Origin: Streptomyces colonosanans
GTDB lineage: Bacteria; Actinomycetota; Actinomycetes; Streptomycetales; Streptomycetaceae
Direction of reading: 5' to 3'
DNA length: 64,000 nt
Assembly: GCF_001866645.1 (NCBI RefSeq)
Contig: NZ_MLYP01000002.1
Coordinates: 62,001 to 126,000, forward strand
Shown: in pieces, positions 1,961 through 13,635 of the stretch
How the letters are laid out: each line of letters opens with the position of its first letter
Position numbering within the stretch: the stretch's first letter is position 1
Made by a program: the position numbers and the translations under genes
The notes under the pieces: model-generated
Databases searched by the model: none
What the model saw: the letters and a program-made list of their open reading frames with translations, nothing else
Told to the model about the DNA's origin: nothing

Positions 1961-2842
1961 TCAGCATGGCGCGTTCTTCGCCGCCACGACCGCGTCGAAC
2001 ACGTCGCGTTTGGGAATTCCGGCCTCCGCGGCGACCGCCGCGATGGCCTCCTTGCGGCGCTCCCCCGCCTCTTCCCGCACCCGTACCCGGCGCACCAGCT
2101 CGTCCGCGTCCAGTTCCTCGGCGGCCTTCTCGCCGGCCCCCTCCACGACGACGGTGATCTCGCCCCGCACGCCCTCGGCGGCCCACAGCACCAGCTCGCC
2201 CAGCGGACCGCGCCTGACCTCCTCGTATGTCTTCGTCAGTTCACGGCAGACGGCGGCCCGGCGCTCGGCGCCGAACGCCTCGGCCATGGCGGCGAGGGTG
2301 GCCTGAAGCCGGTGCGGGGCCTCGAAGTAGACGAGCGTGCGCCGCTCCTCGGCGGCCTCGCGCAGCCGGGACAACCGCTCGCCCGCCTTGCGCGGCAGGA
2401 ACCCCTCGAAGCAGAACCGGTCGACGGGCAGCCCGGACAACGCGACCGCGGTGAGCACGGCGGACGGGCCGGGCACGGCGGTGACCCGGATGTTCTCCTC
2501 CACGGCAGCGGCGACCAGCCGGTACCCGGGGTCGGATACGGAGGGCATCCCCGCGTCGGTCACCAGCAGCACGCGCGCGCCGCCCACCAGGGCCTCGACC
2601 AGCTCCGGTGTCCGGGCGGACTCGTTGCCCTCGAAGTAGGACACGACACGCCCGGCCGGCTGCACACCCAGCGCCTGGGTGAGCCGGCGCAGCCTGCGCG
2701 TGTCTTCGGCCGCGATCACATCGGCGGTCGCCAGCTCCTGCGCGAGCCGCGGCGGTGCGTCCTCGATGTCCCCGATGGGGGTGCCGGCGAGGACCAGGAT
2801 TCCGGACGCGGCTCCGGTCGTGGTTCCGGGTGTAACTGTCAC
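1961..2842 (-). CDS. rsmI: 16S rRNA (cytidine-1402-2'-O)-methyltransferase
   Basis: SAM-dependent tetrapyrrole-methylase-fold enzyme that 2'-O-methylates C1402 of 16S rRNA. Family motifs are clear: LVLAGTPIGDIEDAPPR, AAEDTRRLRRL, VSYFEGNE, VLLVTDAGMPSVSDPGYRLV (SAM loop), VPGPSAVLTAVALSGLP and FEGFLPRK. About 293 residues from the GTG at 2842, which has GAGGA eight to eleven bases upstream. Another GTG at 2878 would add 12 residues and leave only 26 bases to the divergent mannosyltransferase gene. The C-terminal Arg/Glu-rich helices are complete. Confidence 0.92.
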   Translation of the reverse strand: MTVTPGTTTGAASGILVLAGTPIGDIEDAPPRLAQELATADVIAAEDTRRLRRLTQALGVQPAGRVVSYFEGNESARTPELVEALVGGARVLLVTDAGMPSVSDPGYRLVAAAVEENIRVTAVPGPSAVLTAVALSGLPVDRFCFEGFLPRKAGERLSRLREAAEERRTLVYFEAPHRLQATLAAMAEAFGAERRAAVCRELTKTYEEVRRGPLGELVLWAAEGVRGEITVVVEGAGEKAAEELDADELVRRVRVREEAGERRKEAIAAVAAEAGIPKRDVFDAVVAAKNAPC

Positions 2843-2892
2843 GTTTCCATCCTCGCAGGCGCCATCCGCGGGACTCACTCAGCCGGGTTCCC

Positions 2893-2898
2893 TACGAT
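2893..2898 (+). promoter_or_regulatory. Probable -10 element for a leaderless pmt transcript
   Basis: TACGAT sits exactly six bases before the GTG of the mannosyltransferase gene, which has no Shine-Dalgarno sequence. This is the usual arrangement of leaderless Streptomyces messages. No good -35 hexamer is visible. Confidence 0.4.
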
Positions 2899-2904
2899 GG
2901 CGCG

Positions 2905-4644
2905 GTGACCAGTACCGCGTCCTCCACGGACACCCGGCAGGGCCAGGCCACCGAAGACCAGCGGCCGTCGTGGCAGCAACGGCTGCACCGTTTCGGCTAC
3001 ACGGCGCGCCCGGCAAGCGACGTCCGCGACCAGCTGGTGCCGCCGTACAGCGAGCCCAGCCCGCGTCTGTGGGCGGTGATCGGGCTGCGTCGGGAGGTCG
3101 CCGACCGCCTCATGCGCTGGTCGGCGTGGGGCGGCCCGCTGCTCGTGACGCTGATGGCCGGGCTGATGCGGTTCTGGAACCTGGGCAGCCCCGACGCGGT
3201 GATATTCGATGAGACGTATTACGCCAAGGACGCCTGGGCGATCATCCACCACGGGTTCGAGGCGAACTGGGCGAAGGACGCCAACGACCTGATCATCCAG
3301 CACCACGGCCATGTGATGATCCCCACAGATGCCGCGTACGTCGTGCACCCGCCGGTCGGCAAGTACGTCATCGGGCTGGGTGAGCTGATCTTCGGGTTCA
3401 ACCCGGTCGGCTGGCGCTTCATGACGGCGCTCCTGGGCACGCTGTCGGTGCTGCTGCTGTGCCGCATCGGCCGCCGGCTGTTCCGCTCGACGTTCCTGGG
3501 CTGTCTGGCCGGCGCGCTGCTGGCGGTGGACGGGCTGCACTTCGTGATGAGCCGCACCGCGCTGCTGGACAGCGTGCTGCAGTTCTTCGTACTGGCGGCC
3601 TTCGGCTGCCTGCTCGTCGACCGGGACCGGGCGCGCGCCCGGCTGGCCGCGGCGCTCCCGGTGGACGCGGACGGCCGGGTCCGCCCCGACGCGCACACGG
3701 CGGAGACGACGCGCCTCGGATGGCGCCCCTGGCGCTGGCTGGCGGGCCTGATGCTCGGCCTCGCCATCGGCACCAAGTGGAACGGCCTCTACTTCCTGGC
3801 CGCCTTCTGCGTGATGACGGTCCTGTGGGACGTGGCCGCGCGCCGGGTCGCGGGCGCCCACCGCCCCTACCTGACGGTCCTCAAGCGGGACACGGGCTTC
3901 GCGTTCCTGGCGACGGTCCCGGTCGCACTGGCCGTCTACCTCGCCTCCTGGACCGGCTGGATCCTCTCTCCCACCGACGGCTCCGGGGGCTACTTCCGCA
4001 ACTGGGCGGCCACCGACGGCAAGGGCGGCTTCTGGTCTTTCCTGCCCGACTGGCTGCGCAGCCTGTGGCACTACGAGCACGAGGTCTACCAGTTCCATGT
4101 GGGCCTGTCGTCCCCGCACACGTACCAGTCGAACCCATGGAGCTGGCTCGTGGCGGGCCGCCCGGTCTCGTACTTCTACGAGTCCCCCTCCCCCGGCCAG
4201 GCCGGCTGCCCCGCGGACGCGGGCGAGAAGTGCGCCCGCGAGGTCCTGGCGCTCGGCACCCCGCTGCTGTGGTGGGCGGCCTGCTTCGCGATCCTGTACG
4301 TCCTGTGGCGGTGGGCGTTCCGCCGTGACTGGCGGGCGGGCGCGATCGCCTGCGGCGTCGCGGCCGGCTATCTGCCCTGGTTCCTGTACCAGGAGCGCAC
4401 GATCTTCTACTTCTACGCGGTCGTCTTCGTACCGTTCCTGTGCCTGGCGGTGGCGATGATGATCGGCGCCATCCTCGGCCCGCCCGGTTCGAGTGAACGC
4501 CGCCGGGTGGTGGGAGCGGCGGGCGCGGGCGTCCTGGTCCTGCTGATCGCCTGGAACTTCATCTACTTCTGGCCCATCTACACGGGCCAGGCGATCCCGA
4601 TCGACTCGTGGCGGGCGCGCATGTGGCTCGATACCTGGGTCTGA
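2905..4644 (+). CDS. pmt: Dolichyl/polyprenyl-phosphate-mannose protein mannosyltransferase
   Basis: 579-residue polytopic GT39-family enzyme that transfers mannose from polyprenyl-phosphate-mannose to secreted proteins at the membrane. The N-terminal cytoplasmic arm precedes the first membrane helix (around residues 75-95). The catalytic Asp-Glu of the first external loop is present in FDETYYAKDAWAI (Asp102/Glu103), followed by VHPPVGKYVIG, a GWRFM helix, SRTALLDSVLQFF, and the loop near GTKWNGLYF. The C-terminal half carries further helices and ends normally. In Streptomyces this enzyme glycosylates cell-wall and phage-receptor proteins, which fits the following penicillin-binding-protein genes. 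Start GTG; transcription is probably leaderless and divergent from rsmI. Confidence 0.94.
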   Translation: MTSTASSTDTRQGQATEDQRPSWQQRLHRFGYTARPASDVRDQLVPPYSEPSPRLWAVIGLRREVADRLMRWSAWGGPLLVTLMAGLMRFWNLGSPDAVIFDETYYAKDAWAIIHHGFEANWAKDANDLIIQHHGHVMIPTDAAYVVHPPVGKYVIGLGELIFGFNPVGWRFMTALLGTLSVLLLCRIGRRLFRSTFLGCLAGALLAVDGLHFVMSRTALLDSVLQFFVLAAFGCLLVDRDRARARLAAALPVDADGRVRPDAHTAETTRLGWRPWRWLAGLMLGLAIGTKWNGLYFLAAFCVMTVLWDVAARRVAGAHRPYLTVLKRDTGFAFLATVPVALAVYLASWTGWILSPTDGSGGYFRNWAATDGKGGFWSFLPDWLRSLWHYEHEVYQFHVGLSSPHTYQSNPWSWLVAGRPVSYFYESPSPGQAGCPADAGEKCAREVLALGTPLLWWAACFAILYVLWRWAFRRDWRAGAIACGVAAGYLPWFLYQERTIFYFYAVVFVPFLCLAVAMMIGAILGPPGSSERRRVVGAAGAGVLVLLIAWNFIYFWPIYTGQAIPIDSWRARMWLDTWV

Positions 4645-8465: not shown

Positions 8466-8972
8466 ATGACGACGTCCCCCGCAGAAGACTCCGGAGCCCA
8501 CCCCCGTTTCGCCGAGGCGCTGGAAGAGCTGGGGCTCGGTGAACTGCGCACCCGGATCCGCCGTTTCCCGGACGCGACGCGTACCGCTGCGGAGGCCGCC
8601 GCGGCGATCGGGTGCGAACTCAGCCAGATCTGCAAGTCGTTGATCTTCGCAGTGGATCAGGAGCCGGTGCTCGTCCTGATGGACGGGGCGTCCCGGGTGG
8701 ATGTGGAGCGCGTCCGGGAAGAGCTGGGCGCCGAGAAGGTGACCCGGGCGCGGGCCGAGGTCGTGCGGGAGACCACCGGGTACGCGATCGGCGGTGTGCC
8801 GCCCTTCGGACACCGTACGAAGACGCGGGTGCTCGCCGACCGTTCGCTGCTCGACCACGACACCGTGTGGGCCGCGGCGGGCACTCCGCACACCGTGTTC
8901 CCGATGGACCCGAAGACACTGATCGCCCAAGCGGGCGGCCTACTGGTGGACGTGCGCGAGCGGTCCGCGTGA
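8466..8972 (+). CDS. YbaK/ProX-type aminoacyl-tRNA deacylase
   Basis: 168 residues, ATG preceded by AAGGAG. Single YbaK domain: CKSLIFAVDQEPVLVLM holds the conserved catalytic Lys, followed by AIGGVPPFGH and VLADRSLLDHDTVWAAAGTPHTVF. These free-standing domains hydrolyse mischarged tRNAs such as Cys-tRNA(Pro) or Ala-tRNA(Pro) in the cytoplasm. The stop overlaps the start of the interrupted transporter gene by four bases (GTGA), so the two were translationally coupled. Exact tRNA specificity is not evident. Confidence 0.9.
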   Translation: MTTSPAEDSGAHPRFAEALEELGLGELRTRIRRFPDATRTAAEAAAAIGCELSQICKSLIFAVDQEPVLVLMDGASRVDVERVREELGAEKVTRARAEVVRETTGYAIGGVPPFGHRTKTRVLADRSLLDHDTVWAAAGTPHTVFPMDPKTLIAQAGGLLVDVRERSA

Positions 8973-9684
8973 CACCGGCCGTCACCGCGGCGGTGCTGCT
9001 CGCCGCGCTCACGCACGCCGGGTGGAACGCGATCGCGCACCGCATCACCGACAAGCTGGTCGGCTTCACCCTGATCGCGGGCGGCGGGATGCTCATCGGG
9101 CTGGCCATGGCCCCGTTCACGGCGTTCCCGGCGGCGCGGGCGTGGCCGTACCTCCTCGCCTCCGCCTGCATCCATATCGCCTACTACGCGCTGCTGATGC
9201 GCTCCTTCCAGCTCGGCGACTTCGGGCAGGCGTACCCGATCGCGCGCGGCACCGCGCCCCTGCTGGTCACCGTGCTGGCGGCGGTGTTCGCGCACGAGGT
9301 GCCGGACGGCTGGGCCGCGGCGGGCGTCGCCGTGTCGTGCGCGGGCCTGACCGGGGTGGCGCTGTGGGGGCTGCGCGGGCGCCGGCCGAACTGGGCGGCC
9401 ATCGGCGCCGCCCTCGCGACAGGAGGGACGATAGCGGCGTACACGGTGGTGGGCGTACGGGCTTCGGGGTCCTCGTTCGGGTACATCGCGTGGCTGATGG
9501 CGGTGCAGGGAGCCGTGATCCCCGCATACGCCGCGCACCGGTGGCGAGGCGAACTCATCGGCGTGCTACGGCCGTTCGCGACGCTGGGGCTGCTCGGCTC
9601 GGCCCTGTCGGTGACGGCGTACGCCCTGGTCCTGTGGGCGCAGACCCGCGCGGAACTGGCCCCCGTGGCGGCCCTGCGCGAGTC
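8969..9684 (+). pseudogene. EamA/DMT-family transporter, 5' part, interrupted by integration
   Basis: GTG at 8969 overlaps the deacylase stop. The frame encodes nine of about ten membrane helices of a drug/metabolite transporter: HAGWNAIAHRITDKLV, YYALLMRSFQLGDFGQAYPIARGT-type blocks, and a final LWAQTRAELAPVAALRES. In intact members ALRE(T/S)S leads straight into the last helix. Here the frame instead turns into unrelated sequence (Leu-Ala-Gly-Arg) and stops at 9742. The missing C-terminus lies 3.8 kb downstream at 13516-13635 in a compatible frame. The split marks an integration site. The truncated product lacks the last helix and is probably inactive. Confidence 0.85.
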
Positions 9685-9692
9685 TAACTTGG
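9684..9692 (+). repeat. 9-bp direct repeat at left element end
   Basis: CTAACTTGG begins at the left junction; an identical copy lies at 13469-13477, inside the first codons of the integrase. After excision both copies would flank attP. Confidence 0.5.
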
Positions 9693-9869
9693 CTGGTCGG
9701 GGGGCTGGACGTCGAGTAGCAGCTAAGGCGTGGGCCTTTTGAGCCCGCTCGGCCCCAGAGCGGGCAGGCCACCGACCAAACCTGCTCCACCGACCTCTAG
9801 CTAAGGGCGTCGTCAGTCGAGGGCTGGTCACTGGATGTCACTGAGTGGCGTAGGGTGTTCCTACACCGA

Positions 9870-9943
9870 CGCGGGGTGGAGCAGCTCGGTAGCTCGCTGG
9901 GCTCATAACCCAGAGGTCGCAGGTTCAAATCCTGTCCCCGCTA
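9870..9943 (+). tRNA. Initiator tRNA-fMet (CAT)
   Basis: 74 bases, no encoded CCA. Acceptor arms 9870-9876 and 9936-9942 pair except for C1 against T72, the end mismatch typical of bacterial initiators. The anticodon arm CTGGG/CCCAG gives three consecutive G-C pairs below a CTCATAA loop, the other initiator hallmark. The T arm is GCAGG-TTCAAAT-CCTGT. It lies inside the integrated element, about 185 bases from its left end. It looks intact and, with its own terminator, is likely expressed. Confidence 0.93.
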
Positions 9944-9949
9944 CTACAT

Positions 9950-9986
9950 GAAGCGGAGCCTGGGCGTACACACCAGGCTCCGCTTC
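9950..9986 (+). terminator. Intrinsic terminator after tRNA-fMet
   Basis: Perfect 14-bp stem (GAAGCGGAGCCTGG and its complement) with a 9-base loop, followed by ATTTATT. Starts seven bases after the tRNA. Confidence 0.85.
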
Positions 9987-10194
9987 ATTTATTGCTGGGC
10001 AGTTTCCTTTCGGCCCAGCGAGTGACGTCAGTCAACCCTGGCTCATACAGTAATAACCTTGCTAGCCAGGGGGCTTGACGAGGTCATCCCGTACACTCCG
10101 GCCACGTCTTATGCCGTGAGTCCTCGGTACGGTCGAGGTCGTGACCGGCGAGCGTCGGGCAATGCCTCTTGCGGAAGTGTTGAGGTCCTGCTGG

Positions 10195-10638
10195 CTACGG
10201 AGTTGGGTGCGCTGTAGGTGTTGGTCGCGCTCCTGCTGCCCTGAGGATTTCGGCAGTGTCGGGGTGGGGGCCATTGTTCGCCCAGTCCAGGGGGGACCTG
10301 CCTGCGCCGTGGTCTTCGCGGAGGTTGGGATCAGCGCCATGCGCCAACAGTTCCCGGACCGTTTCGGTGTGTCCCCAGCAAGCGGCTGCGCACAGCGGTG
10401 TGCCCTCCGAGCCGGGCCCGCTACTTTCTGCGTCAAGAGAAGCCCCGGCTTCCATAAGCAAGCGGGCTACTTCGGCCTCTCCCTGTACCGATGCCAGGTA
10501 CAGAGGAGTGGTGCCGTCGGTGTTCCTTCTCTCCGGACTCGCTCCACTGCGCAACAGGGCCTTCGCGCTCCTGGCATCGCCTGACAGGACTGCCTCGAAG
10601 AGTCGGTGAGAGAGCTTCTTCTGCTGCCGCTGCTTCAT
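10195..10638 (-). CDS. Ankyrin-repeat protein
   Basis: 147 residues beginning MKQRQQKKLSHRLFEAVLSGD. Three to four ankyrin units follow: ARSAKALLRSGASPERRNTDG, TTPLYLASVQGEAEVARLLMEAGA, GTPLCAAACWGHTETVRELLAHGADPN and SPLDWANNGPHPDTAEILRAAG. No signal peptide or membrane helix, so it is probably a cytosolic protein-binding module. It is cargo of the integrated element. A phage- or defence-related role is possible, but nothing in the sequence shows one. Confidence 0.85.
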   Translation of the reverse strand: MKQRQQKKLSHRLFEAVLSGDARSAKALLRSGASPERRNTDGTTPLYLASVQGEAEVARLLMEAGASLDAESSGPGSEGTPLCAAACWGHTETVRELLAHGADPNLREDHGAGRSPLDWANNGPHPDTAEILRAAGARPTPTAHPTP

Positions 10639-10677
10639 AGCCGGTGAGGCTAGCGATCACGGATGCGCCAGAGCCAG

Positions 10678-11205
10678 TCAGAACGGAAGCTCGGGCCTGG
10701 CGGCGCCTCGCCTGATAGTCATGATCTGCTCGTGGAAGTCGCGCGTGGCGGCTTCGCGCGGGTACCTGGCGCGCAGTTCCTTGTCCAACTCGTCGGCGAC
10801 TAAAAGCAGGGATGGCAGGGACTTCTGGTCGGCTTCCAGAGCTGTGGTGCCCATGCCGATGGCTTCTTCGATGTCACCCATCCGGGCGGAGGCGACTCCG
10901 AGCGTGAGACGGGCCTCTGCCGCGCGCATGGGTGAGATCTCGGTCCCGTCGGGGCCGGTGCTGATACGGATCACGGAGCGGGCGTGGGCGGCGGCGCGTT
11001 CGTCATCTCCGAGGAGGCGGTAGGCGTCCATCTCGCAGAAATCCCACTTGTCCGGGTCAATGATGAAGTGGTGTTCGGGGTGGTCGGGCCTGGGGAGTCG
11101 GTCCAGCCTCGCGCGCCCGGCGTCGAGTGACTCGCGGACGAGGCGGCCGTCTCCCATGCGTGCGGCGGCGCGGGCCTTGTGCGCGTACAACTGTGGGCCT
11201 GTCCG
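10678..11205 (-). pseudogene. C-terminal remnant of a TPR-containing XRE-type regulator
   Basis: The frame encodes helical-repeat sequence: QLYAHKARAAARMGDGRLV, LDRLPRPDHPEHHFIIDPDK, WDFCEMDAYRLLGDDERAAAHA, PMRAAEARLTLGVASARMGDIEEA, SLPSLLLVADELDKEL. This matches the C-terminal half of Streptomyces helix-turn-helix/TPR regulators of about 400 residues. No DNA-binding domain precedes it: upstream of about 11205 the sequence changes abruptly into the tandem-repeat region, and residues before that have no homologous look. The open frame continues to an ATG at 11262, so a short protein could still be made, but it is best read as a truncated gene. Confidence 0.7.
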
Positions 11206-11336
11206 ACGGGTCGCGTCACCGACCCCGCACCCGCCAAAACTGTCACCCGACCGGCGCAACATGACGTGCCACCCACATGGGTGAGGATCAAGCTGACTAG
11301 TGCCCCAACCGAGTCAATCCGTGAAAGGGGAACCAA

Positions 11337-11540
11337 ATGCGCATTCGACGAATCCTCGCCGCCGTCAGCGCCACGGCAGCCCTCGCCGGGCTCGGCCTCA
11401 CAGGCGCCGCCACCGCCACCGCACAGGATGGCTCAGGCTTCACCACCCCGTCTCAGTGCAGGGAGGGCGGCGGACAGCCCTATCTGCACAACACCGTCAA
11501 ATGCTGGGGCGGCAAATACGACGGGATGACTGTCGACTAA
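11337..11540 (+). CDS. Small secreted two-cysteine protein (copy 1)
   Basis: 67 residues. Signal peptide: basic MRIRR, hydrophobic ILAAVSATAALAGLGLTG, AATATA-type cleavage near residue 29. The mature part of about 38 residues has CREGGGQP, a spacer, then CWGGKYDG, ending in a Val-Asp. The two Cys could form one disulfide. GAAAGGGGAACC lies just upstream of the ATG. I do not recognise the family beyond the impression that short Streptomyces secreted proteins with C-x2-GGG...C-x-GG-x-x-(D/N)-G exist. Candidate roles (bacteriocin, signalling peptide, surface peptide) are guesses. Confidence 0.75.
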   Translation: MRIRRILAAVSATAALAGLGLTGAATATAQDGSGFTTPSQCREGGGQPYLHNTVKCWGGKYDGMTVD

Positions 11541-11550
11541 ACCCCACAAG

Positions 11551-11579
11551 GCGCCCCGCAGCCACGCGCCGCGGGGCGC
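11551..11579 (+). terminator. Hairpin after peptide gene 1
   Basis: GCGCCCCGC pairs with GCGGGGCGC, 9 bp, 11-base loop, eleven bases after the stop. The same hairpin follows copy 2. Confidence 0.6.
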
Positions 11580-11736
11580 TCCCGCGCGAGCGTTGCCGGG
11601 AGAGTCGCGGGGACTGTGCCGACCCCGCACCCGACAGCCCTGTCACCCGAATGACGCAACATGACGTGCCACCCACATGGGCGAGGATCAAGCTGACTTG
11701 TGCCCCAACCGAGGCAATCCGTGAAAGGGGAACCGA

Positions 11737-11943
11737 ATGCGCATTCGACGAATCCTCGCCGCCGTCATCGCCACGGCAGCCCTCGCCGGACTCGGCCTCA
11801 CAGGCGCCGCCACCGCCACCGCCGCCACCACAAAGGGTGCCCCATCCGCCGTCACCCCTGAAGAGTGCCGGGAGGGCGGCGGAATGCCAGAAAACTTCTC
11901 CTGCGTGGGCGGTACGCATAACGGGCAGTACCTCCTCGACTAA
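11737..11943 (+). CDS. Small secreted two-cysteine protein (copy 2)
   Basis: 68 residues; the signal peptide is identical to copy 1 except Ser to Ile at residue 11. The mature part differs: TTKGAPSAVTPEE, CREGGGMP, a spacer four residues shorter than in copy 1, then CVGGTHNG and a final Leu-Asp. Both cysteines, the GGG and the C-x-GG-x-x-(D/N)-G block are conserved while the linkers are not, which argues that the Cys-bracketed fold is what is selected. Each copy has its own upstream region and terminator, so the two genes are separate transcription units. Confidence 0.75.
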   Translation: MRIRRILAAVIATAALAGLGLTGAATATAATTKGAPSAVTPEECREGGGMPENFSCVGGTHNGQYLLD

Positions 11944-11953
11944 ACCCCACAAG

Positions 11954-11982
11954 GCGCCCCGCAGCCACGCGCCGCGGGGCGC
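11954..11982 (+). terminator. Hairpin after peptide gene 2
   Basis: Same 9-bp GCGCCCCGC/GCGGGGCGC stem as after copy 1. It lies between the + strand peptide gene and the convergent integrase gene. Confidence 0.6.
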
Positions 11983-12038
11983 GCCCGCGCGAGCGTAGCC
12001 GGGAGAGTCGCAGGGACTGTGCCGACCCGTCGGGCACG

Positions 12039-13487
12039 CTAGTCCAGAGGGTTCGGTTCGATCTCCACCCGGTCCGTGTCGAACCCCCTACCCCTCCGTG
12101 TCGGCGGGCCGACGATCACGGCGGCGAACAGGAACCGATAAATCGCGTTCATACGCGCGTGGTCCTCCGCCTTCTCCAACCTCTCCCAGTTGGCTTCGGC
12201 GTCCGGTCCCGCGATCCCCTCCAGGACGGCAACCGGCCGCTTGATGGTCTTCCGCTGCCGCTCCTTCATCCGCTTCACGATCGGCGTGCGCATGGCCTGG
12301 AAGTCGGCGGTCGTGAAGTCGTCGTCGTTGAGCCACAACTCCTTCAGCTCCCGCAGCTTCTCGCGGTCCTTCTCGTCCGCGATGACGTCGGCTTCGGGGC
12401 GCGTGGTCATGGCGGGCTCGTAGCCGGAGGTGTCCAGCTTGGTCAGCACCTTGATCGCCACGTCCCGAACGAATGCCTCCAACGGCTCGGCCGAGACGGA
12501 GCGGTTGCACTTCTGCTGGTCGGTGTTGTCGGCGCGGTTGCACCGGTAGTAGGGGTACCGCACGCTGTTCGATCCACCCATGCGCGCTCCGCATGCGCAG
12601 GTGACCACCCCGCGCAGGATGTAGTTCCGGATCGGCCGAGTCTTCGTGTCCCGGTGTTGCTGGGCGCGGTATTCCCTGAGCCGCTGCACCTCGTCCCATT
12701 GGCCCCGGTCGATGATGGCGGGCCACGTCCCGACGGCCACTTCTTCGCCCAGGTGGAACCGCAACCCCGCCACGAAGTGGGACGACAGCAGATGGCGAAC
12801 GTTCTCGGGGTTCCACGCCTTGCCCTTCGACGTGGGGATGCCGCGTGCTGCAAAGTCCTGCGCCATCTGGTTCGGTGACTCTCCGTCCAGGTAGCGGCGG
12901 TAGACCTCACGAACGATCTCCGCTTCCTCCTCGACGATCGCACGGCCGTCACGGGTGTAGCCGTACGGCCGGTTGCCCACGTGCGGCCGACCTTCGCGGG
13001 CGTGGTCCTTCAAGGCATCCTTGAGGCGGCGCGACGAATCGTCGGAGGAGCGGCACGCGTGGGCGACCTCGATACGAAGGATGAAACGGTCGTCTGGGTC
13101 CGACAGGTCCCGTCGGTTCGCCTCGCCATGCAGAAGGACGCGCTTGTCGTCGGCGATGGAGAGCAACTCCTCAAGATCCTTGGGCTGCCTCATGAGGCGG
13201 TCGGGGTGGTAGACGATGACGTGCCGAATCTCCCCGTCCCCCATCGCGTTCAGCATCGCTTCCCAACCCGGCCGCTTGCGGTTGCGCTGCCACGCCGAAC
13301 GGTTGTTGTCCACGTAGACGTGCGTCGACTCGACGCGGAGTTGCAGCCGTTCGGCGATGTCCCGGCAGATGCGCTCCTGGCGGTCCACTCCGGTCTGGTC
13401 CTCATCCCGGGTGTGGGAGATAAGGCAGTAGATCGCTGCGGGCTCGCCCGGTGTGATCGTGGCCTTGCCTAACTTGGATCGACTCAT
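12039..13487 (-). CDS. Large serine recombinase (integrase)
   Basis: 482 residues from the ATG at 13487. N-terminal resolvase domain: AAIYCLISHTRDEDQTGVDRQ places the nucleophile at Ser24, and HPDRLMRQPKDLEELL is the conserved DRLxR region. The recombinase domain follows (HAREGRPHVGNRPYGYTRDG; GIPTSKGKAWNPENVRHLL), then a zinc ribbon (CACGARMGG...YYRCNR...KCNRS, residues about 300-330) and a long helical C-terminus. No Shine-Dalgarno precedes the ATG, but TACGGT lies just upstream, so a leaderless message is possible. The frame stays open far upstream through the host DNA, but that extension is not coding. It should catalyse attP x attB integration of the surrounding element. Confidence 0.9.
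   Translation of the reverse strand: MSRSKLGKATITPGEPAAIYCLISHTRDEDQTGVDRQERICRDIAERLQLRVESTHVYVDNNRSAWQRNRKRPGWEAMLNAMGDGEIRHVIVYHPDRLMRQPKDLEELLSIADDKRVLLHGEANRRDLSDPDDRFILRIEVAHACRSSDDSSRRLKDALKDHAREGRPHVGNRPYGYTRDGRAIVEEEAEIVREVYRRYLDGESPNQMAQDFAARGIPTSKGKAWNPENVRHLLSSHFVAGLRFHLGEEVAVGTWPAIIDRGQWDEVQRLREYRAQQHRDTKTRPIRNYILRGVVTCACGARMGGSNSVRYPYYRCNRADNTDQQKCNRSVSAEPLEAFVRDVAIKVLTKLDTSGYEPAMTTRPEADVIADEKDREKLRELKELWLNDDDFTTADFQAMRTPIVKRMKERQRKTIKRPVAVLEGIAGPDAEANWERLEKAEDHARMNAIYRFLFAAVIVGPPTRRGRGFDTDRVEIEPNPLD
13469..13477 (+). repeat. 9-bp direct repeat at right element end
   Basis: CTAACTTGG, identical to 9684-9692, encoding part of the integrase N-terminus on the minus strand. Either part of an attP arm or chance. 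Confidence 0.45.
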
Positions 13488-13515
13488 GGAAACACCGTAT
13501 GAGCCGGGTATGACA

Positions 13516-13635
13516 TCGATCATCGTCGGCGCGGCGATCGGCGCGATCTTCTTCAAAGAGCGGTTCGGCATCCCGCGGATCGCGGCGGCCGGACTGCTGG
13601 TCCTCGGCATCGGCCTGATGCTGCACGCCGGGTAG
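13516..13635 (+). pseudogene. EamA/DMT-family transporter, 3' part
   Basis: From the TCG codon at 13516 the frame reads SIIVGAAIGAIFFKERFG followed by IPRIAAAGLLVLGIGLMLHAG and TAG. This is the last helix of the EamA fold, with its KERFG signature and end. It is in frame with the 5' part at 8969-9684 if the intervening 3.8 kb is removed. No start or ribosome site of its own. Confidence 0.85.

What the first reader, a model, noticed from the sequence alone, without database searches (positions are those of the whole stretch)
11221..12023. Tandem pair of secreted two-Cys peptides with conserved leader and diverged mature part
The 400-bp cassettes match closely in the upstream region, signal sequence and terminator but not in the mature peptide, where only C-x2-GGG...C-x-GG-x-x-(D/N)-G is kept. 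That pattern is typical of peptides under diversifying selection (bacteriocins, signals, immunity or surface factors). Linked to a mobile element, they may be an undescribed small-protein system.
Basis: partly seen in the sequence, partly recalled or inferred. Interest (0 to 1): 0.65.

Follow-up and report, generated by a model that had tools for sequence, protein, structure and literature searches.

The report
Mobile cassette of secreted two-cysteine peptides
Two side-by-side genes for tiny exported proteins sit together inside what looks like a small jumping DNA cassette; the same kind of cassette turns up in many Streptomyces species, with a nearly fixed export signal and a fast-changing exported part whose job is unknown.

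Summary
Two cassettes, 400-403 bp apart (11219-12028), encode 67- and 68-aa proteins with a near-identical leader and diverged mature parts that keep two Cys and a Gly pattern. The family is real: cassette DNA occurs in 38 of 392 genomes of the genus, and 48 of 48 examined copies have exactly two Cys and a relaxed form of the motif. No Pfam, NCBIfam, PHROGs or PADLOC family claims it. My main addition is the carrier. The pair lies inside one pair of imperfect inverted repeats (11195-11213, 12023-12039) beside a CTAG. Such ends flank 23 (left) and 18 (right) of 48 copies, against 0 and 2 of 186 control windows; identical or similar ends bound an IS5-family transposon and short MITEs in the genus. 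Best reading: a transposase-less mobile insertion cassette with a secreted mini-protein as passenger. The serine-integrase element is an incidental host: its five closest relatives lack the cassette. The mature part has pN/pS 1.38 overall, but only 0.59 among the closest pairs. No clean empty site was found. Function is inferred only: extracellular, not cationic.

The parts
11195..11213 (+). left terminal inverted repeat of the cassette element
   Evidence: GGGCCTGTCCGACGGGTCG; pairs 15 of 17 with the right end; such a left end (up to 3 mismatches) in 23 of 48 copies vs 0 of 186 control windows
11267..11285 (+). conserved upstream palindrome CACCCA-CA-TGGGTG of cassette 1, about 52 bp before the ATG
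   Evidence: region found in 44 of 48 copies, at 52 bp in 36 of those 44; all six arm positions paired in 24 of 44
11337..11540 (+). secreted two-Cys peptide 1 (67 aa)
11551..11579 (+). terminator-like hairpin 1
   Evidence: hairpin sequence (up to 3 mismatches) in 44 of 48 copies
11619..11625 (+). 7-nt overlap where the 3' end of cassette 1 meets the 5' end of cassette 2; no inverted-repeat ends here
   Evidence: D1 copy starts at 11619 and D2 copy ends at 11625; junction printed
11667..11685 (+). upstream palindrome of cassette 2 (one mismatch)
11737..11943 (+). secreted two-Cys peptide 2 (68 aa)
11954..11982 (+). terminator-like hairpin 2
12023..12039 (-). right terminal inverted repeat of the cassette element
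   Evidence: CGACCCGTCGGGCACGC; such a right end (up to 3 mismatches) in 18 of 48 copies vs 2 of 186 control windows
12039..12042 (.). CTAG at the right edge; it contains the stop codon (TAG, minus strand) of the serine integrase
   Evidence: integrase relatives L247 and L248 have CTAG at the same stop without a cassette

Best explanation
The pair is the passenger of an ~848-bp transposase-less mobile insertion cassette (11195-12042) with IS5-family-type ends and a CTAG target preference. A single-gene version, 428-545 bp between its ends, is scattered among Streptomyces genomes; the gene with its leader DNA occurs in about a tenth of them. Here two cassettes were joined head-to-tail at a 7-nt overlap and share one pair of ends. 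Shown: the repeat anatomy, the shared ends, the scattered contexts, an IS5-family transposon with such ends. Inferred: movement in trans by such a transposase, followed by decay of the ends; the window copy has CTAG only on its right side. Each gene has its own palindrome-bearing upstream region, ribosome-binding-like site, leader and terminator-like hairpin. The product is inferred to be exported by Sec and cut after A-x-A, leaving a roughly 34-51-residue, mostly acidic mini-protein clamped by one disulfide. The constant leader DNA with a changing mature part suggests that recombination among cassettes shuffles or homogenises leaders, and that the mature part diversifies because it meets a varying extracellular partner. 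My guess for that role is competition or recognition between strains (about 0.3).
For: Ends: left in 23 of 48 copies, right in 18, both in 17; 0 and 2 of 186 control windows. In 31 further named loci: 15 left, 13 right, 8 both. The left edge is exactly CTAG in 7 of 23 copies, with a background of 3.6e-4 per position. CTAG at both edges: L120, L181, L182. The cassette's left end, with CTAG, bounds both sides of a 1.5-kb transposon with IS5-type transposase domains (DUF4096; DDE_Tnp_1 in two frames, the second part below cut-off) in L230; similar ends bound 115-219-bp MITEs in L231-L235 and L241. Three places in the window's own genome resemble that transposase (42-55% identity) and have CTAG- or TAG-bounded ends of a similar kind. 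Contexts: 29 for 48 copies. Integrase relatives: 0 of 5 carry the cassette. Peptide: 48 of 48 copies with two Cys and the relaxed motif; commonest base at third positions of leader codons averages 94.7% over 48 copies; mature pN/pS 1.38 vs leader 0.59. AlphaFold: two central 10-residue blocks at pLDDT 92.
Against: No empty target site was seen: 0 of 392 genomes for the commonest flank pair, and none in the 119 genomes searched besides G146 for the L120 flanks; the right L120 flank is itself a repeat at contig ends of G146. 25 of 48 copies lack the left end and 30 the right, so the gene family is older than, or independent of, the ends. At least eight copies share some 40-120 bp more on both sides of the ends; this right flank was found full length only in two cassette carriers, with a 49-nt part elsewhere in a third and nine weaker matches, so a larger unit may be what moves there. 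Only 3 of 25 copies with both ends have CTAG on both sides, and the window's left edge is TGTG. No IS with identical ends was found in the window's genome. Many single hits of the end pattern may be chance: 71 matches in 121 genomes against 20 for the reversed pattern. The pN/pS ratio is 0.59 in the closest pairs. No expression, secretion or activity data exist.
Confidence: 0.58

Rival explanations
1. Ordinary chromosomal small-protein family. The genes spread with integrative elements and homologous recombination at tRNA and integrase hot spots; the inverted repeats are MITE scars that happen to flank some copies.
For: 25 of 48 copies lack the left end. One group of four copies without ends sits at an orthologous place (L042, L048, L114, L117). 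ORFs of a loose cluster whose longest member has integrase domains (F1, 8 loci) lie near some copies; L041 and L049 have tRNA-like 3' ends upstream, read by eye. A larger ~655-bp block is shared by L099 and L100 in one genome. No empty sites.
Against: Both ends recur around the gene in 17 of 48 copies, with 0 and 2 of 186 control windows, the left one at CTAG in 7 of 23, as in IS5-type elements of the same genus.
Confidence: 0.3
2. The conserved-leader, diverged-mature pattern is made by recombination (leader homogenisation or mature-part swapping), not by positive selection.
For: Leader dS is far below mature dS in the window pair (0.08 vs 0.62). Family leader pS is 0.10, while neighbour families F5-F9, F11 and F12 have 0.30-0.42. 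Third codon positions of the leader are as fixed as the others. L165 in another strain has nearly the same mature part as copy 1. Mature pN/pS is 0.59 in the 62 closest pairs.
Against: Mature pN/pS is 1.06, 1.57 and 1.37 in the three more distant bins, above every control family; swapping alone should not raise pN relative to pS, though GC-biased third positions can. Two neighbour families, F2 and F13, have leader-like pS (0.12 and 0.08), so low pS is not unique. Not exclusive of the best explanation.
Confidence: 0.4
3. The peptides are bacteriocin-like toxins of the cassette carrier.
For: Leader-bearing, small, two invariant Cys, fast-changing, patchy in the genus.
Against: No immunity gene in the conserved cassette. 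Mostly acidic mature part, mean charge -2.4, range -6 to +1. Relatives of the mature part exist outside the genus (L279, L282, L283), in contexts not examined.
Confidence: 0.15
4. Peptide signal with a TPR receptor (RRNPP-like; name recalled), using the neighbouring TPR gene.
For: An ORF with NsdA-family TPR similarity (46 bits) lies directly upstream, divergently.
Against: It matches only profile positions 274-432 of 432 and is below the family cut-off of 75 bits, and its first codons are cassette DNA, so it looks like a truncated remnant; other copies lie in many unrelated contexts, and no TPR family stood out among shared neighbours.
Confidence: 0.04
5. Cargo system of the serine-integrase element.
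For: The cassette abuts the integrase gene, and both lie between two parts of an EamA-like transporter gene.
Against: 0 of 5 closest integrase relatives have it; the integrase stop CTAG is itself a possible target; no peptide match in phage, plasmid or viral collections.
Confidence: 0.05

Closest known systems
Mobile insertion cassettes (MIC231 of Bacillus cereus; mic-qnrD) - passages of PMC3913671 and PMC3129680 seen
   Same: Passenger gene between two IS-like inverted repeats, no transposase inside, movement in trans expected.
   Different: IS5-like ends at CTAG instead of IS231-type ends; passenger is a very small secreted protein; tandem duplicated passengers; target duplication only in a minority of copies; movement not shown.
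IS5-type insertion sequences and MITEs of Streptomyces (L230, L231-L235, L241, L268-L270 here)
   Same: CTAGGG-type ends; both L230 ends are identical to the cassette's left end over 19 bases.
   Different: The cassette has no transposase and carries the peptide gene; its right end differs (CACGC at the edge).
DUF333 (PF03891)
   Same: A sister family near seven cassettes (A4) has two Cys, GG after the first and PDG after the second, and 3 of its 7 members match DUF333 weakly (best E 0.063, 14 bits against a cut-off of 25).
   Different: The cassette peptides themselves have no meaningful Pfam match, and A3 against A4 gives probability 9% over 17 columns.

Membership tests
Mobile insertion cassette (MIC) | bracketed by two inverted repeats | tested here: met
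   Window: 15 of 17 positions pair. Family: both ends in 17 of 48 copies and 8 of 31 further loci; the rest lack one or both.
Mobile insertion cassette (MIC) | no transposase gene between the repeats | tested here: met
   The two peptide genes are the only plausible genes between 11195 and 12042; overlapping ORFs without support exist.
Mobile insertion cassette (MIC) | target-site duplication | tested here: inconclusive
   CTAG at both edges in 3 of 25 copies with both ends (L120, L181, L182). In the window CTAG is on the right only.
Mobile insertion cassette (MIC) | empty site without the cassette in a relative | tested here: inconclusive
   Integrase relatives L247 and L248 keep CTAG at the stop without a cassette, which covers the right side only. 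No empty site in 392 genomes for one flank pair or in 119 genomes besides G146 for another.
Mobile insertion cassette (MIC) | mobilised in trans by a related transposase | not testable with these tools
   An IS5-type transposon with such ends exists in another genome (L230).
DUF333 (PF03891) | match above the Pfam gathering score | tested here: not met
   No DUF333 match for the 42 members of A3 at E up to 10; five other families matched one member each, best E 0.069. Sister family 14 bits against a cut-off of 25.
Bacteriocin with immunity gene | co-travelling immunity gene | tested here: not met
   The conserved cassette holds one peptide gene; flanking genes differ among 29 contexts.
RRNPP-type peptide and TPR receptor pair (definition recalled) | intact HTH-TPR receptor beside the peptide | tested here: not met
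   Beside the window pair only a C-terminal TPR fragment; no such family recurs beside other copies in the ORF clustering.

The most novel reading that the evidence does not exclude
A Streptomyces-wide pool of transposon-borne, promoter-leader-terminator cassettes that spread and recombine to generate a changing repertoire of disulfide-clamped extracellular mini-proteins used for recognition or competition between strains: a bacterial counterpart of hypervariable secreted peptide families with constant leaders.
Probability: 0.2. Interest if true: 0.8.

Novelty: new variant of a known kind. Interest (0 to 1): 0.5.

Why it matters
If true, it joins two things usually seen apart: a transposase-less IS-type cassette and a fast-changing secreted mini-protein family that current family libraries miss. 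It gives a defined set of peptides in named Streptomyces strains (L155-L199) whose export, target and mobility can be tested directly, and it warns that location beside an integrase need not mean that a gene is cargo of that integrase.

Tried and rejected
Cargo of the serine-integrase element: rejected on 0 of 5 relatives. Phage or plasmid gene: no match to peptide 2 in 50,697 phage and 72,556 plasmid records (low-complexity filter on), and none in viral contigs with a 10-row alignment. Peptide plus TPR receptor: rejected, truncated ORF. The upstream palindrome as a wider regulon: the own-genome scan gave 41 hits with up to 3 mismatches, three of them the cassettes, control 10; I read the surroundings of eight, which looked like chance by eye. 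IS481 as mobiliser: an IS481-type transposase abuts the third own-genome copy (L037) but was not found in the other loci held at that time. Known fold: two Foldseek hits at E 7.3 and 9.0, no VIA match; PDB sequence search gave one hit at E 1.3. Interrupted genes: joined flanks of 25 copies gave no convincing junction-spanning gene (L181, L183 and L189 gave weak ORFs only). Literature: seven searches (one returned nothing) listed no paper that I could tie to this peptide family; I saw listings and starts of abstracts, and passages of PMC3913671 and PMC3129680. Rows dropped before counts: the sister family and the disrupted L119, L109 as a repeat of L108, L196; the partial match L118 was not picked up.

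Full report
Observation. The repeat search confirms two cassettes 400-403 bp apart: upstream region plus leader 94% identical, 3' region 97%, and between them mature parts that keep the two Cys and the Gly pattern. The ORFs are 67 and 68 aa. Pairwise dS is 0.08 in the leader and 0.62 in the mature part.

Family. The protein search found a match at E <= 0.001 in 27 of 199 genomes of the genus; the leader DNA found 38 of 392 (only two candidate places per genome were scored, so copy numbers may be low). The window's genome holds three copies, two here and one on another contig. A profile of mature parts found 10 of 296 genomes of the class, four of them outside the genus; of those, L279, L282 and L283 show the motif near an ORF's end, and L284 gave no motif match in my scan. 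No family library names the peptides; weak hits were far below cut-offs. My working set is 48 copies: the matches plus the third own-genome copy, without L118 and L119; the sister family was left out. All 48 have exactly two Cys and a relaxed motif; net charge averages -2.4.

Carrier. Aligning 25 copies showed that similarity stops at short inverted repeats in many of them. In the window these are 11195-11213 and 12023-12039, 15 of 17 positions paired; 2 of 1000 random edge pairs did as well. The left end is present in 23 of 48 copies, the right in 18, both in 17; control windows gave 0 and 2 of 186 (the two window copies share one pair of ends, so they count once on each side). In 31 further loci the numbers are 15, 13 and 8. 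A scan for this kind of end in 121 genomes gave 71 matches in 35 genomes, against 20 for the reversed pattern, so many single matches may be chance. Facing pairs are more telling: short MITEs (L231-L235, L241) and a 1.5-kb element, L230, with CTAG at both edges. L230 holds DUF4096 and DDE_Tnp_1, in two frames, plus a DinB-like gene below cut-off. Three places in the window's own genome resemble its transposase and have CTAG- or TAG-bounded ends of a similar kind but another sequence.

Insertion. The right edge of the window cassette is a CTAG that contains the stop codon of the serine integrase. Among the five closest integrase relatives (73-92% identity) none shows the cassette in the 420 bp after the stop, and two have CTAG at that stop. 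The left edge is TGTG and abuts a truncated NsdA-like TPR gene, so the left side was probably rearranged. CTAG at both edges was seen in 3 of 25 copies with both ends. Empty-site searches failed: 0 of 392 genomes for the commonest flank pair and none in the 119 genomes besides G146 for the L120 flanks, whose right side is itself a repeat. At least eight copies share longer flanks; in 174 genomes that right flank was full length only in two cassette carriers, with a 49-nt part elsewhere in a third carrier and nine weaker matches. So transposition by these ends is the best reading but not proven, and for that subgroup a larger unit may move.

The pair. The two window cassettes overlap by 7 nt (11619-11625) and have no ends between them, which fits joining by recombination at a short match. 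Pairs recur elsewhere: L157 has two cassettes in tandem, and L043 has two facing each other. L165, a single cassette in the same strain as L157 and with both ends, has nearly the same mature part as window peptide 1.

Evolution. Over reliable columns the mature part has pN/pS 1.38 (bootstrap 1.27-1.52) and the leader 0.59; by distance the mature ratio is 0.59, 1.06, 1.57 and 1.37 from the closest to the most distant pairs. Eight nearby control families with at least 90 columns gave 0.14-0.91; F1, F2 and F3 have fewer columns. Leader pS (0.10) is below that of seven control families (0.30-0.42), although F2 and F13 are as low (0.12 and 0.08). The commonest base averages 94.7% at third codon positions of the leader, and 83% in the 60 bp before the ATG, counted without gaps. 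I conclude that leaders are homogenised or recently spread and that mature parts change fast; positive selection is possible but not separated from recombination, saturation and GC bias.

Structure and function. The mature part is predicted as a small strand-helix-hairpin unit, mean pLDDT 81 with two central blocks at 92, without a PDB match. A sister family found within about 5 kb of seven cassettes has weak DUF333 similarity. The single disulfide is inferred from two invariant Cys in a leader-bearing protein. The role is not shown; extracellular recognition or competition is my guess.

Known kinds. The element fits the description of mobile insertion cassettes, which are bracketed by inverted repeats, lack a transposase and usually show a target duplication (passages of PMC3913671; PMC3129680). 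Two features are met, two are inconclusive and one cannot be tested, so I call it MIC-like rather than a proven MIC.

Noticed in passing
window 9683-13518: A serine integrase (12039 to about 13488, minus; Resolvase, Recombinase and Zn-ribbon domains), an ankyrin-repeat gene and a tRNA-Met gene lie between two parts of an EamA-like gene (8969-9688 above the Pfam cut-off; 13519-13632 only 14.5 bits), as if a ~3.8-kb integrative element split it. The ends were judged by eye; att sites were not determined.
   Followed up: partly
window 9870-9944: tRNA-Met (CAT) gene inside that putative element.
   Followed up: no
window 10678-11262: C-terminal fragment of an NsdA-like TPR regulator (below the family cut-off) whose first codons are cassette DNA.
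   Followed up: partly
window 10195-10638: Ankyrin-repeat protein with similarity to PADLOC candidate PDC-M72A (E 1.9e-15), probably through the repeats.
   Followed up: no
L230:1005-2546: IS5-type transposon whose two ends are identical to the cassette's left end, with transposase domains in two frames and a DinB-like passenger gene.
   Followed up: partly
L038, L041, L045, L049, L096, L106, L111: A second small two-Cys family with a leader (..DDCTAAGGQ..CALPDGT..) lies within about 5 kb of seven cassettes, with weak DUF333 similarity.
   Followed up: partly
L099:2733-3387 and L100:2654-3310: A ~655-bp block containing the cassette occurs at two places of one genome and in part in other genomes, larger than the inverted-repeat unit.
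   Followed up: partly
L103, about 2700-3735: The sequence left of the cassette is directly repeated to its right (read by eye).
   Followed up: no
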